Shown piece by piece: positions 16,243 through 20,996 of a stretch of DNA of 64,000 bases. The notes under the pieces are model-generated. The model saw nothing but the letters and a program-made list of their open reading frames with translations, ran no database searches and had not been told where the DNA came from. Position 1 is the first letter of the stretch. Every line of letters begins with the position of its first letter. This DNA comes from Oscillatoriales cyanobacterium (lineage in GTDB: Bacteria > Cyanobacteriota > Cyanobacteriia > Cyanobacteriales > Microcoleaceae). The stretch is taken from positions 55,533 through 119,532 of the forward strand of contig RDYN01000012.1 in the NCBI GenBank assembly GCA_004293365.1, read 5' to 3'. The position numbers and the translations under genes were made by a program.

Positions 16243-16271
16243 TTGACACTCTTGTAGTATATATGTAGTAT
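16243..16271 (+). promoter_or_regulatory. Strong sigma-70-type promoter for the Ubl/Y RNA locus
   Basis: TTGACA at 16243-16248 and TAGTAT at 16266-16271 are 17 bases apart, close to the consensus for group 1 sigma factors. Transcription would begin near 16278 and run through a leader of about 450 bases to the 66-residue gene and then into the Y RNA-like elements. Confidence 0.6.
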
Positions 16272-16733
16272 GAGTATATGGAAAGCGCAGGAGAGCCAAA
16301 AACCTGTATTTTCCGTACCAAATCTGAACCTTGACAACTAAATAGCGTTCGAGATTTCAAGGAACATCAATTTGAAAGTCTTGCAATACAGACTTGATTG
16401 TCATGTTGTTACTTTTCACGAGACTGTTCAGTTACAGACTGACTCAGCCTGAGTCAGATTTTGTACCAAAACAGCCGAATTTCAACGAATCTCAGGCGGA
16501 TTCAGAACAGCACAGTTGCGATCGATCGCGATGGGCCCAAAAGACTGAGGAAATCCGCCATCTCAAACAAGCTTACCATTTAGAGCGGCGTTTGTTTATG
16601 TAAAAATTGTCATGTTAGCGCCGATGCGAATGCTGGCAATTTTTACCAACTAACCCCACAACTAAAGAGCAGAAAAGCTACTAATCCAAAATCTAAAATA
16701 TCAAATCTAAAATCGCTTAAGGAGGTAACAGTT
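16272..16733 (+). other. Long leader region before the 66-residue gene
   Basis: This stretch contains one open frame of 69 codons (16394-16603, MIVMLLLFTRLFSYRLTQPE...) with no clear ribosome site and no recognised similarity; I regard it as doubtful. The last 40 bases contain the tandem AAATCTAAAAT-type repeat. A very good ribosome site (AAGGAGGTAA, about 16719-16728) belongs to the next gene. No other feature was seen. Confidence 0.4.
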
Positions 16734-16934
16734 ATGGTTCACATTCGTTTTGAAGGACGTTCCTATGATGTGGCAGAAAACCAACTGGGTATCACAGCAG
16801 GAATGAGCGACAAAACAATTCAGGAACGTCTGGCAAATCATTTTGATGTCAAGAGCGATCGCTTCGAGTCTTACGTGCTCGATCGCCGTCCCAGCGGCGA
16901 TTTAATTGTCCGCCCAGAAGCGGTTTACGGCTAG
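16734..16934 (+). CDS. Small putative beta-grasp (ubiquitin-like) protein
   Basis: The 66-residue protein shows a pattern expected for a compact ubiquitin-like fold: a beta hairpin (VHIRFEGRSYDVAE), a helix (MSDKTIQERLANHF), then two strands (RFESYVLDRR and DLIVRPEAVY). It ends in a single Gly. A strong ribosome site precedes it. It starts the block that leads to the Ro60-like gene, and an E1/ThiF-like gene lies 7.8 kb downstream. The fold and any conjugation are inferences; there is no GG terminus, so processing or non-conjugating use is possible. I know the family only as conserved hypothetical. Confidence 0.6.
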   Translation: MVHIRFEGRSYDVAENQLGITAGMSDKTIQERLANHFDVKSDRFESYVLDRRPSGDLIVRPEAVYG

Positions 16935-16946
16935 GAATTTACTTTT

Positions 16947-17219
16947 ATTCCGCGCCCTAATTCGAGAAGCCTACAAACATTAGGGTGGGAGCATTTCAGT
17001 TTTGCATTTACAGTGCTGCCCCGCTCAAAAAATGAATGGTTCGTAGTACGGACTTCAGTCCGCTCTTTAAAAATGCTTCTTGCAAAACTGAGATGCTCCC
17101 CATTAGGGTTCTAGTTCTGAAAAGATTACGGGTTCAATTCCCGCTAAAGGCTTCGGCTTTTATGGTGGAATGGCAAACACGGTAGAAATTGTCAAAAGCT
17201 TTTCAAACTTGCGCGGAAT
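16947..17219 (+). ncRNA. Candidate Y RNA A with permuted tRNA-Leu-like module, split by a MITE
   Basis: The ends pair perfectly over nine bases (ATTCCGCGC 16947-16955 with GCGCGGAAT 17211-17219). After an internal loop (CCTAATTC / AAACTT), a second stem forms (GAGAAGC with GCTTTTC). Inside, in permuted order, are an anticodon-like half stem (17109-17113), a T arm (CGGG TTCAATT CCCG, 17129-17143), a 7-bp acceptor-like hairpin capped by TTCG (17145-17162), a D arm with GG in its loop (GTG...CAC, 17165-17180) and the other half stem TAGAA (17183-17187). The D arm resembles tRNA-Leu. Without the 123-base insertion (MITE plus one target copy) the RNA would be about 150 nt. Confidence 0.75.
16979..17109. 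mobile_element. MITE inserted in Y RNA A, with 8-bp target duplication
   Basis: The element (16987-17101, about 115 bases) has 20-bp terminal inverted repeats differing at one base (GGGAGCATTTCAGTTTTGCA and the complement of TGCAAAACTGAGATGCTCCC). It is flanked by the direct repeat ATTAGGGT (16979-16986 and 17102-17109). Inside is one arm of the GTAGTACGGACTTCAGTCCG repeat family. There is no coding capacity, so it is a non-autonomous element. A relative of the same length lies at 21190-21305. Confidence 0.82.
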
Positions 17220-17238
17220 CAAAAAATGATCGGTTGTC

Positions 17239-17347
17239 GGGGGCGCACCCCAACTCAATAAGCTTGCAAACTGGCGAAGGTTCGACTTAAAATCGAATAG
17301 TAGGTTCAATTCCTAAAAAACAAAGCTTCTCTGACTCGTGCGCCACC
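17239..17347 (+). ncRNA. Candidate Y RNA B with tRNA-Leu(UAA)-like remnant in normal order
   Basis: GGCGCAC (17242-17248) pairs with GTGCGCC (17338-17344), and AAGCTT pairs with AAGCTT as second stem after the loop. The 5' strand (CACCCCAACTC...AAGCTTGC) and 3' strand (AAAGCTTCTCTGACTC) follow the array consensus. The interior has TGGCGAA, as in the D-arm start of tRNA-Leu(UAA). It also has a 5-bp arm TTCGA/TCGAA with a 7-base loop CTTAAAA (17281-17297), which is an anticodon loop reading UAA, and a T arm TAGG TTCAATT CCTA (17301-17315). There is no D loop or acceptor stem, so it cannot be a working tRNA. Confidence 0.7.
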
Positions 17348-19268: not shown

Positions 19269-19290
19269 TTAATTTAAAATCGCAGTTTTT

Positions 19291-19367
19291 GCCGCGCCCA
19301 AATCGCGAGAGCTTACATACAAACCCTATCTAGGTTTACCAAAAAAAGCTCCCCAAACTTGCGCGGT
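19291..19367 (+). ncRNA. Candidate minimal Y RNA F without tRNA module
   Basis: GCCGCGC (19291-19297) pairs with GCGCGGT (19361-19367), six Watson-Crick pairs and one G-U. GAGCTT pairs with AAGCTC as second stem. The loops CCAAATCGC / CCCAAACTT match the array consensus. The distal part is a single small hairpin, AAACC CTATCTA GGTTT. At about 77 nt it has just the presumed Ro-binding stem, like short Y RNAs. It lies 190 bases before the Ro60-like start codon. Confidence 0.65.
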
Positions 19368-19413
19368 GATTTTTAAAACAGGAATTTTACGCATACATTC
19401 TAGATGTAGGGTG

Positions 19414-19434
19414 CGCACTGCGCACCTTACCACT
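19414..19434. repeat. GTAGGGTGCGCACTGCGCAC-type repeat
   Basis: A single copy of the palindromic unit (core TGCGCACTGCGCA) that is arrayed after the Ro60-like gene and in two other places in the window. Confidence 0.75.
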
Positions 19435-19556
19435 AATAAATAGCGTGTCAAACGTAAGTCCTGAGAATTCACTCGCTAGCGTGCAACAATTGCCAACCAC
19501 CGATTTTGAATACTTCTCAAATCCCAAATCCAAAATCGAATAGGAAGGTGACACCA

Positions 19557-20996
19557 ATGAATATGAATACAGCAGAGCGCGATTTACGTTTAGAAATGCT
19601 CAACAGTCTGCTCACCACACCTCACCGCCAACTGGAAAAGGTGACAGAAATTCACAAATTAATTATCGAATTAGATCCGATTTTTTACGGTCATTTAGCA
19701 GTGTGGTATCAGCGTCACGGCGACGTGCGCGACCACAAGGAAGTTTTTGCCGGAAACTTGCTGACTTCGGCCCTGACAGAGCACCGAGACGCCGGGTTTA
19801 TGATGTTACAAGAGTTCCCGCCCTACGAGGTTTCGCGGATTGTGGACTTTATGAAGCAGCACCAGAATAAGCTGCCTCGCAGCGCGCGCACTGCTGTCAC
19901 TCGCTATCTGCGATCGCGCGAAAAGAATGCTCAGTTTTTCGATCGCGCCGCCATCCGCAACCGCAAGGCGATGAAGCACTTGTATGCGACTCTGCACGTC
20001 AAGCCGAGCGATCGAGCTAATGCTATCCTGTTTAAAGACAATCCGCCGGAAGACTCGCTGGCATTTGTTTTGAAGCAGTTAGCGAAGGCCGCTACTCCTG
20101 CGGAACAGGCGAATTTGATTGTCGAGTACAAGATTCCCTATACGATCGCAGTTGGTGCGATCAAAATGCTCACGCCAACGGTGTTAGCGGCGCTGATTAA
20201 TTCGATGTCGCCACAGGAAGTCATCAACAACCTGAAATCAATTCAGTCTCGCGGCGCGATGGATCACCCGGAAGTCAAGCTGTTGATTGACTCGAAGTTG
20301 GATGAAGCCGCCAAGTGCGATCGGGTTTCTGCTTACAAAGCGAGTGTTGCCGGCGGTAGCGCAAACTTTGACGCAGCCACGGCGGCGAAGCTGGAAGCGG
20401 TGACAAACGAACAGGTGAAGAAGCGCGGCAAGATTGTCAAAGCCACCGGTTTGTTGGTTGACAAGTCGGGAAGCATGGAAAGTGCGATCGAAGTTGGCAA
20501 GCGTCTCGCTGCCATGATTTCGGGCATTTCCGAGGCTGCGCTGTTCGTCTACGCCTTCGACACGATGCCCTATCCAGTGGTAGCAAACGGCTGCGAATTG
20601 ACCGATTGGGAGCGCGCATTCAAGCACATTCGCGCAGGCGGCGGCACAAGTTGCGGTTGCGCGGTGGAAGCAATGCGGATTAAGAAGCAGGTGGTTGAGC
20701 AGTTCATCATAGTAACAGATGAAGGCGAAAATTCCTCACCTTATTTTGCAGATGCTTATCAGAAATACTGCCACACTTTGGGCGTAATTCCTGATGTGGT
20801 GATTGTGCGAGTTGGCGCTTGGTGCGATTATGTTGAAAAACAATTGAAGGACAAGCAAGTGTCGGTGGAAACCTTTACGTTTGCTGGCGATTACTACTCG
20901 CTGCCGAACTTGGTGCCGATGTTGTCTCGTCCTTCGCGGCTGGAATTGTTGATGGAAATTCTGGATGAGGCTTTGCCAGTCAGGGATGACAAGTAA
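19557..20996 (+). CDS. Ro60-like RNA-binding protein (TROVE + vWA domains)
   Basis: The 479-residue protein has a helical TROVE ring (about residues 5-290: IFYGHLAVWYQRHGDVRDHK, FPPYEVSRIVDFMKQHQNKL, RSARTAVTRYLRSRE) followed by a von Willebrand A domain. The vWA has an intact MIDAS: DKSGS at 302-306, Thr-364 (GGGTSCG) and Asp-388 (VTDEGEN). Ro proteins bind misfolded or structured RNAs in the ring and Y RNAs on the outer surface; bacterial Rsr works with PNPase in RNA decay and rRNA maturation under stress. The start at 19557 has AGGAAGGTG upstream; an earlier in-frame codon at 19506 has none. The adjacent Y RNA-like array strongly supports the call. Confidence 0.92.
   Translation: MNMNTAERDLRLEMLNSLLTTPHRQLEKVTEIHKLIIELDPIFYGHLAVWYQRHGDVRDHKEVFAGNLLTSALTEHRDAGFMMLQEFPPYEVSRIVDFMKQHQNKLPRSARTAVTRYLRSREKNAQFFDRAAIRNRKAMKHLYATLHVKPSDRANAILFKDNPPEDSLAFVLKQLAKAATPAEQANLIVEYKIPYTIAVGAIKMLTPTVLAALINSMSPQEVINNLKSIQSRGAMDHPEVKLLIDSKLDEAAKCDRVSAYKASVAGGSANFDAATAAKLEAVTNEQVKKRGKIVKATGLLVDKSGSMESAIEVGKRLAAMISGISEAALFVYAFDTMPYPVVANGCELTDWERAFKHIRAGGGTSCGCAVEAMRIKKQVVEQFIIVTDEGENSSPYFADAYQKYCHTLGVIPDVVIVRVGAWCDYVEKQLKDKQVSVETFTFAGDYYSLPNLVPMLSRPSRLELLMEILDEALPVRDDK

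What the first reader, a model, noticed from the sequence alone, without database searches (positions are those of the whole stretch)
16243..20996. Ro60-like protein with an array of six Y RNA-like genes
Six elements (16947, 17239, 17392, 17659, 17841, 19291) have complementary ends, the same 5' strand motif (GCGCCC.AA....GAAGCTTAC) and the same 3' strand motif (AAGCTTTT..AACTTGCGC). They lead up to a TROVE/vWA gene with an intact MIDAS. Bacterial Ro proteins are known to bind Y RNAs with a stem made of the RNA's two ends and a conserved internal loop, and one or two Y RNAs per locus is the usual picture. Six sequence-diverged copies sharing only the stem would be an unusually large set, so one Ro protein could be fitted with different RNA adaptors.
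Basis: partly seen in the sequence, partly recalled or inferred. Interest (0 to 1): 0.95.

Follow-up and report, generated by a model that had tools for sequence, protein, structure and literature searches.

The report
Ro RNAs mimicking tRNA and ribosome
Next to a distant bacterial relative of the human autoantigen Ro60, a cyanobacterium carries six predicted small-RNA genes that share one stem, five of them topped by look-alikes of tRNAs or of a working part of the ribosome, and these RNAs would likely act as baits that hold tRNA- and ribosome-acting proteins on the Ro protein.

Summary
Six + strand elements (16947-19369) share an end stem and a CCYAAC/AACTT internal loop and lead up to a vWA protein that misses Pfam's TROVE model but is a divergent Ro/TROVE homologue by profile-profile comparison. 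Eighty related loci hold 338 such elements on the gene's strand and 5 on the other; stems and heads covary strongly. Heads in the window: canonical-order tRNA (one), tRNA circularly permuted as in known YrlA (two), a decayed third tRNA layout, a copy of 23S rRNA 1911-1941 (H69-H71), and a small hairpin. The same contig, 31 kb upstream and inside an array of 26 tRNA genes, holds a further element that joins copies of the 23S sarcin-ricin loop and of the L11-binding GTPase centre (the latter at E 3e-13). High-scoring tRNA-headed elements occur in 24 of 28 sampled genomes with the gene and 2 of 358 without (cut-off set after seeing the scores). Long tRNA arrays lie upstream in several relatives; two of five viral contigs with the gene carry such elements. 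Predicted role: a Ro RNP whose exchangeable RNA heads bait proteins acting on tRNA and 23S rRNA when translation is damaged. Expression, binding and function are untested.

The parts
16243..16271 (+). promoter-like TTGACA-17-TAGTAT upstream of the 66-aa gene; could drive gene, RNA array and Ro-like gene together (inferred)
   Evidence: 10 of 12 matches; the region's 7 promoter-like hits do not exceed shuffles (mean 5.7)
16734..16934 (+). 66-aa protein, C-terminus RPEAVYG invariant; no known domain
   Evidence: found in 79 of 102 loci, on the strand of the Ro-like gene in 79 of 79
16947..17219 (+). Y element 1: permuted tRNA-like (type II by its orthologue L002:5459-5608), interrupted by a hairpin insert between CATTAGGG repeats at 16978 and 17101
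   Evidence: the script left the interrupted copy itself unsorted
17240..17346 (+). Y element 2: decayed tRNA-like of a third layout (anticodon arm, T arm, no D arm; the closed acceptor hairpin of its relatives is lost)
   Evidence: R1 model 52.6 bits
17393..17513 (+). Y element 3: canonical-order tRNA-like head (type I)
   Evidence: Rfam tRNA 39.3 bits at 17418-17487; ARAGORN; R1 model 119 bits
17659..17802 (+). Y element 4: circularly permuted tRNA-like head (type II)
   Evidence: Rfam YrlA RF02553 36.6 bits, E 1.3e-5, at 17678-17788, below its cut-off of 69; R2 model 132.8 bits (the model includes this copy)
17845..18031 (+). Y element 5: head copying 23S rRNA H69-H71 (class A); 17882-17912 matches E. 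coli 23S 1911-1941
   Evidence: 81% over 31 nt, E 8e-4 for this copy; relatives to 3.6e-7; class HMM E 3e-7
18077..18748 (+). p223, unknown protein between the RNA array and the Ro-like gene
   Evidence: 51 of 102 loci, same strand in 51 of 51; named homologues seen are cyanobacterial hypothetical proteins
18804..19268 (+). p154, unknown protein
   Evidence: 31 of 102 loci, same strand in 31 of 31
19289..19369 (+). Y element 6: mini element (stem plus small hairpin), 187 nt before the Ro-like start codon
   Evidence: a mini element in 61 of 80 loci and an element 40-132 nt before the gene in 73 of 94
19557..20996 (+). Ro-like protein (479 aa): TROVE-type N-terminal part and vWA domain
23865..24695 (+). 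p276, unknown protein; relatives near the Ro-like gene in 52 of 102 loci
   Evidence: a look-alike ORF follows the viral Ro-like gene in L138, by eye
24762..25400 (+). ThiF/E1-like adenylyltransferase; relatives near the Ro-like gene in 48 of 102 loci
   Evidence: Pfam ThiF 7.2e-25

Best explanation
The locus encodes a divergent Ro60/TROVE-type protein and an array of six Y RNA-type elements, five of which carry heads resembling tRNA (in two, perhaps three, backbone orders) or the H69-H71 part of 23S rRNA, and these RNAs would likely work as exchangeable baits that hold proteins acting on tRNA and on 23S rRNA at the Ro protein. Shown by sequence and comparison: the common stem, the head classes, their covariation, their linkage to the gene and to tRNA arrays, and a further element in the same contig whose head joins the sarcin-ricin loop and the GTPase centre of 23S rRNA. 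Inferred: that the elements are transcribed and processed; that the end stem with the CCYAAC/AACTT loop is the Ro site; that the heads are read by proteins which normally read the tRNA elbow, the GTPase centre, the sarcin-ricin loop or H69-H71 (nucleases, decay or modification enzymes, translation factors); and that the outcome is to steer or disarm such proteins when translation is damaged, beside the spare tRNAs of the linked array.
For: Protein: hhalign against 7 cyanobacterial TROVE proteins 97.0%, E 1.1e-10 for this one comparison, 412 columns; PDB TROVE chains at 1.8e-4 with viral relatives in the profile; PHROG_850 RNA-binding protein 1.2e-5. RNA family: 338 elements on the gene's strand, 5 on the other. 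Covariation: type I 96.2% of cells paired, 21 of 31 pairs with double changes; type II 96.7%, 24 of 32; class B 95.2%, 20 of 49; class A 96.1%, 16 of 36; on the covariation score 0 of 500 shuffles reached the observed value in each. 23S mimicry: 67 of 413 elements hit rRNA, 36 at 23S 1036-1115 and 25 near 1909-1941, against 0, 0, 0, 1, 1 in five shuffles and 0 reversed; LSU covariance model 1.3e-11 on L020, 2.9e-13 in the own genome; exact sarcin-ricin 12-mer in 35 of 36 class B and 0 of the other elements; bases 1067, 1085, 1088 kept in 5 of 5 class B sequences compared. Not decoding: 27 anticodon triplets among 92 type I elements, T loop nearly constant. Linkage: type I model at 65 bits or more in 24 of 28 genomes with the gene, 2 of 358 without. 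tRNA arrays: 282 ordinary tRNA calls upstream on the gene's strand, 0 opposite, 0 downstream, over 80 loci. Viral contigs: elements in 2 of 5.
Against: No expression or binding data. No structure model could be made, so the Ro ring is unproven, and Pfam TROVE is not matched. Element 1 is split by an insert and element 2 is decayed. Mini and class E heads match no rRNA. The 65-bit cut-off was chosen after seeing the scores; at E 1e-5 the model rings in 156 of 386 genomes, weak hits that I take for plain tRNA genes without inspecting them. Two genomes have a strong hit without the gene, and some copies lie away from it. Only 13 of 80 loci have 3 or more ordinary tRNA genes within the flanks, and in the own genome the array is about 28 kb away. 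Class A keeps 1916-1937 best and often lacks part of the H69 loop.
Confidence: 0.5

Rival explanations
1. RYPER-like adaptors only: all heads are variants that tether the Ro-like protein to PNPase or another exonuclease for decay of structured RNA, and the 23S-like heads are merely further folds that serve that.
For: YrlA's tRNA-like domain binds PNPase, and D. radiodurans Y RNA tethers Rsr to it (PMC8394870 and PMC4726728, passages). Type II matches the YrlA model.
Against: Does not explain why two heads copy exactly two 23S functional centres and no other rRNA region tested.
Confidence: 0.22
2. Plain decoys for RNA-cutting toxins and anticodon nucleases: the heads are sacrificial targets, and Ro only stabilises them.
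For: Known toxin targets are tRNA anticodon loops, the sarcin-ricin loop and 23S loop 70 (PMC7180214, passages); inhibition of an anticodon nuclease by YrlA was proposed in print (PMC7790460, passage); tRNA arrays lie next door.
Against: Type II heads have no anticodon loop, and type I anticodons drift. The window's class A copy and the others aligned do not keep the UUCCU target that the review gives for MazF-mt6. The GTPase centre is not listed as a target in the passages read.
Confidence: 0.15
3. Sinks or substrates for tRNA/rRNA modification enzymes or for uL11/translation GTPases, setting their free level.
For: YrlA is a substrate of DusA and TruB (PMC8394870, passage); class B holds the L11-binding fold.
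Against: No single enzyme or factor would read all heads; the strict common Ro-type stem points to a protein-bound role.
Confidence: 0.1
4. Neutral debris of a tRNA array and rRNA, or repeats that only look structured.
For: Element 1 carries an insert, element 2 is decayed, and ordinary tRNA genes are nearby.
Against: Strong covariation and strand bias across many genera. Where the gene is degenerate the elements are mostly gone: 0 by descriptor in L122, L124, L125 and 1 weak in L123, though G383 (L125) keeps one 65-bit model hit.
Confidence: 0.03

Closest known systems
Bacterial Rsr (Ro60) with YrlA/YrlB or DrY RNA (RYPER)
   Same: Ro-type protein with RNAs encoded beside it, paired ends, and a tRNA-like domain; type II has the YrlA permutation
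   Different: Pfam TROVE not matched; 1-8 elements per locus; canonical-order tRNA heads and 23S-like heads, neither of which appears in what I could read
Long tRNA gene arrays (L-arrays) of Anabaena
   Same: Near-complete tRNA sets in one strand, said to matter under translational stress (PMC9938897, passage; the original paper is not held)
   Different: Here they stand beside Y elements and a Ro-like gene in part of the loci; whether the Anabaena array does was not tested
[quoted passage not shown]
   Same: The same two 23S regions that class B joins; only the title was seen, in a reference list
   Different: Synthetic fragments; class B is a natural conserved RNA
tmRNA and viral tRNA-like structures
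   Same: RNAs that copy tRNA outside decoding (PMC8394870, PMC11472068, passages)
   Different: The elements have no reading frame and a Ro-type stem; a tmRNA-like piece lies beside some Nostoc arrays

Membership tests
Ro60/TROVE protein | Sequence homology to TROVE proteins | tested here: met
   Profile-profile 97.0%; PDB TROVE chains 1.8e-4 with A9, only 0.42 with A1
Ro60/TROVE protein | Match to Pfam PF05731 above its cut-off (a detection limit rather than a biological trait) | tested here: not met
   0 of 32 members of A9 at E 0.01
Ro60/TROVE protein | C-terminal vWA domain with intact MIDAS | tested here: met
   Invariant DxSxS, T364, D388; vWA families in 14-16 of 32 members
Ro60/TROVE protein | Ring of helical repeats closed by the vWA domain | not tested
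   Structure prediction never ran
Ro60/TROVE protein | Binds Y RNA on the outer face and RNA ends in the ring | not testable with these tools
   needs experiment
Bacterial Y RNA (YrlA, RF02553) | 5' and 3' ends form a stem with a conserved internal loop, encoded beside a Ro gene | tested here: met
Bacterial Y RNA (YrlA, RF02553) | Permuted tRNA-like domain with D, T and closed acceptor arms | tested here: met
   Type II only; RF02553 below cut-off in the window, L026 and L011
Bacterial Y RNA (YrlA, RF02553) | Rfam gathering score | tested here: not met
   36.6, 37.1 and 31.5 bits against 69
Bacterial Y RNA (YrlA, RF02553) | Bound by Ro in cells | not testable with these tools
   needs pull-down
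tRNA gene | Free paired acceptor end for charging, conserved anticodon | tested here: not met
   Acceptor stem continues into the Y stem; anticodons vary
23S rRNA gene or gene fragment | Contiguous rRNA sequence | tested here: not met
   Only 1909-1941, or 1036-1115 plus the sarcin-ricin word, set inside a Y stem

The most novel reading that the evidence does not exclude
A class of Ro ribonucleoprotein with a cassette of exchangeable RNA heads that together copy translation's working surfaces: tRNA wired through its acceptor, anticodon or D arm, the H69-H71 bridge, and the sarcin-ricin loop joined to the GTPase centre. The heads serve as baits in a portable translation-protection module with spare tRNAs, carried by cyanobacteria and by some viruses.
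Probability: 0.35. Interest if true: 0.97.

Novelty: new variant of a known kind. Interest (0 to 1): 0.92.

Why it matters
Bacterial Y RNAs are known as tRNA mimics. RNAs that copy functional centres of 23S rRNA on the same Ro-type stem would be a new principle: one protein given many target-like heads. It makes the old question of what Ro/Y RNPs do directly testable, because each head predicts its partner, and it links Ro RNPs to long tRNA arrays in cyanobacteria and beside virus-borne Ro-like genes. Practically, annotation tools call many of these elements tRNA genes and can call one a partial 23S.

Tried and rejected
Rejected: independent tRNA genes (acceptor continues into the Y stem, anticodons drift). 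Own promoters or terminators per element: hits near shuffle level. rRNA origin of the mini and class E heads, including my guess of 23S H82-H88 for class E: no match. Anticodon-nuclease decoy as the whole story: type II has no anticodon loop. An R1 hit beside a Pfam TROVE gene (L088) proved to be ordinary tRNA genes. A ubiquitin-like nature of the 66-aa protein: no support in Pfam, NCBIfam or PDB profile searches. Four tRNA-type elements gave weak 23S hits at 1083 and two gave single hits elsewhere; I treat these as noise.

What was dropped or uneven: elements marked 'x' were left out of the per-locus counts. Three elements filed as type IV were re-filed by eye (two to I, one to II); L003, L004, L005, L013 and L105_7773 look like type IV but stayed unsorted. 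The 413 elements come from the loci held except L001 and L082-L103, and include repeats (L105 is the window; L109/L077 and L111/L081 are the same contigs by length). The 80 loci are the best 80 of 264 relatives. The alignments A3-A6 are non-redundant selections of 32, 26, 13 and 15 sequences. Yardsticks were E. coli 16S, 5S and 23S and one cyanobacterial 23S; cyanobacterial 16S was not tested. No paper on cyanobacterial Ro/Y RNAs or on rRNA-copying Y RNAs showed in the listings, but the main Y RNA papers are not held, so this is weak.
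Full report
CHECK OF THE OBSERVATION. The window is C204:55533-119532 of a 7.3-Mb assembly; the closest named loci are Microcoleus and other Oscillatoriales. Between a 66-aa gene (16734-16934) and a vWA gene (19557-20996) lie six + strand elements with pairing ends. Shared parts: an end stem of 9 bp, a loop CCYAAC facing AACTT, and a second stem around AAGC/GCTT. The second element has decayed ends. The first is split by a hairpin insert lying between two copies of CATTAGGG, of which its orthologue in L002 has one.

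THE PROTEIN. Pfam, NCBIfam and a single-sequence PDB search give no TROVE. A profile of 61 proteins finds PDB TROVE chains only at E 0.42 but aligns to seven cyanobacterial TROVE proteins with 96.8% probability. With five viral relatives added it reaches 97.0%, E 1.1e-10 over 412 columns (the E-value is for one comparison) and the PDB TROVE chains at 1.8e-4. PHROG_850, an RNA-binding family, matches at 1.2e-5. I call the protein Ro-like. Pfam TROVE genes occur in 25 of 194 sampled genomes of the phylum, not in the own genome; the Ro-like gene in 28 of 386, some of them degenerate or split. Named relatives also occur in Chloroflexota. No structure could be predicted.

THE ELEMENTS ARE A REAL FAMILY. 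Over L002-L081 the descriptor finds 338 elements on the gene's strand and 5 on the other; the earlier scan including the window gave 305 against 26, and 30 in one shuffle of both strands. After dropping hits marked 'x', 78 of 80 loci carry 1 to 8, most often 4. The first element starts 5-15 nt after the 66-aa gene in 28 of 79 loci, and the last ends 40-132 nt before the Ro-like gene in 73 of 94. This fits a processed common transcript, which is inference.

HEADS. Clustering of 413 elements gives one tRNA-like cluster of 235 and two 23S-like clusters of 36 and 28, plus small ones. A script sorts the 235 into 132 type I (canonical order), 63 type II (permuted), 16 type IV (three re-filed by eye) and 24 unsorted. 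Type I is a tRNA standing on the Y stem through its acceptor stem, with D, anticodon and T arms, some with a long variable arm; ARAGORN calls a tRNA in 85 of 268 elements. Type II stands on the Y stem through the anticodon stem, its acceptor stem closed by a loop; a bacterial Y RNA with such a circular permutation is known (PMC11472068, passages), and the window's copy matches Rfam YrlA at 1.3e-5, below the family cut-off. Type IV appears to stand on it through the D arm; this rests on reading a few sequences. Covariation: type I 96.2% of cells paired, 21 of 31 pairs with double changes; type II 96.7%, 24 of 32; 0 of 500 shuffles reached any of the five measures. Anticodon triplets vary (27 kinds among the 92 elements where an arm was found) while T loops hardly do.

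23S MIMICS. Class B (about 208 nt, 36 copies in 35 loci) carries the L11-binding GTPase-centre fold, found by Rfam's LSU model at 1093-1148, and the exact sarcin-ricin word in 35 of 36; its consensus fold includes the helices of that region (95.2% paired, 20 of 49 pairs with double changes). Class A (about 187 nt, 28 copies in 28 loci) carries 23S 1909-1941; the window's element 5 is one (E 8e-4 for that copy; class E 3e-7; 96.1% paired, 16 of 36). Rfam found nothing in one class A copy. A second match of class A, near cyanobacterial 23S 1835-1885, is weak (E 0.42), so its being permuted too is only a thought. In all, 67 of 413 elements hit rRNA: 36 and 25 at these two places, four weakly at 1083, one each at 1270 and 1382; five shuffles gave 0, 0, 0, 1, 1 and the reversed set 0; E. 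coli 16S gave none.

CONTEXT. In 102 loci the 66-aa gene is found in 79, p223 in 51, p154 in 31, p276 in 52 and an E1-like gene in 48; the first three are on the Ro-like gene's strand in every locus that has both. Ordinary tRNA calls outside the listed elements number 282 upstream on the same strand, 0 opposite, 0 downstream, over 538 and 532 kb. They are uneven: 13 of 80 loci have three or more, seven have 23-29. In the own genome 26 tRNA genes lie at C204:40.8-47.3 kb with the class B element among them and a mini element just after. Such an array matters for survival under translational stress in Anabaena, as cited in PMC9938897 (passage); the original was not available. In 28 loci, mostly Nostoc and two of them repeats, a stretch like the one that Rfam scores as tmRNA ends without the middle in L039 lies beside the array. 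Of five viral contigs with a Ro-like gene, L138 (two) and L142 (one) show Y elements by a strict stem scan, with canonical and permuted tRNA heads; L139-L141 gave none.

CO-OCCURRENCE. With the type I model, 26 of 386 genomes reach 65 bits: 24 of the 28 with the gene and 2 of 358 without (Fisher p 7e-32). I set the cut-off after seeing the scores; at E 1e-5 156 genomes match, mostly at 40-50 bits, which I take for plain tRNA genes but did not inspect. The four misses are three degenerate genes (G201, G123, G165) and one gene on a short contig (G114). By descriptor the degenerate loci L122, L124 and L125 have none and L123 one weak hit, but G383 (L125) keeps one 65-bit model hit.

MECHANISM. 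Shown: conserved paired elements with a common stem, heads copying tRNA and two 23S centres, a Ro-type protein, linkage to tRNA arrays. From papers: in D. radiodurans the Y RNA tethers Rsr to PNPase and gates RNA entry (PMC4726728, passages); YrlA was proposed as a competitive inhibitor of an anticodon nuclease (PMC7790460, passage). Inferred: each head recruits a protein that normally reads the copied surface, so that one Ro protein can meet several enzymes or factors of translation and its decay. Bait with tether fits the strict Ro-type stem better than a free decoy, but the decoy stays open.

SCORING. The structural finding is firm, the function is not. I file it as a new variant of the Ro/Y RNA kind, because the stem, the neighbouring Ro gene and the permuted head are known, whereas 23S-copying heads and canonical-order tRNA heads were in nothing I could read.

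Noticed in passing
window 16978-17108: MITE-like hairpin insert inside Y element 1 with a duplicated CATTAGGG; the orthologue L002:5459-5608 has one copy.
   Followed up: partly
window 8760-10175, - strand: Predicted anti-phage ATPase: PADLOC PDC-M47A 810 bits, PD-T4-4_A 542 bits.
   Followed up: no
own genome C204:40777-47255 (L147): Array of 26 tRNA genes upstream of the window with a 23S-mimic element inside it.
   Followed up: partly
L039:5535-5618; similar stretch in 28 loci: tmRNA-like ends without the middle (46.6 bits, cut-off 47) beside the Y array.
   Followed up: partly
L039:5690-5930: By eye, two halves of another tRNA bracket a type I Y element, as if the element stood in its anticodon arm.
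   Followed up: no
L058, L074, L079, L112 and others: Insertions beginning GGTACCCT..GGGAA inside the T loop of tRNA-like heads, possibly small mobile repeats.
   Followed up: no
   Followed up: no
window 16734-16934 and 24762-25400: A small protein ending in YG and an E1-like enzyme near the same Ro-like gene in many loci; a ubiquitin-like pair is a guess without support.
   Followed up: partly
window 21000-21180: Tandem GTAGGGTGCGCACTGCGCACC-type repeats just after the Ro-like gene.
   Followed up: no
L022:7189, L072:7794, L081:7796 (class E): Elements with a conserved GGTGCG-hairpin-CTGCAAGCC head that matches no rRNA tested.
   Followed up: partly
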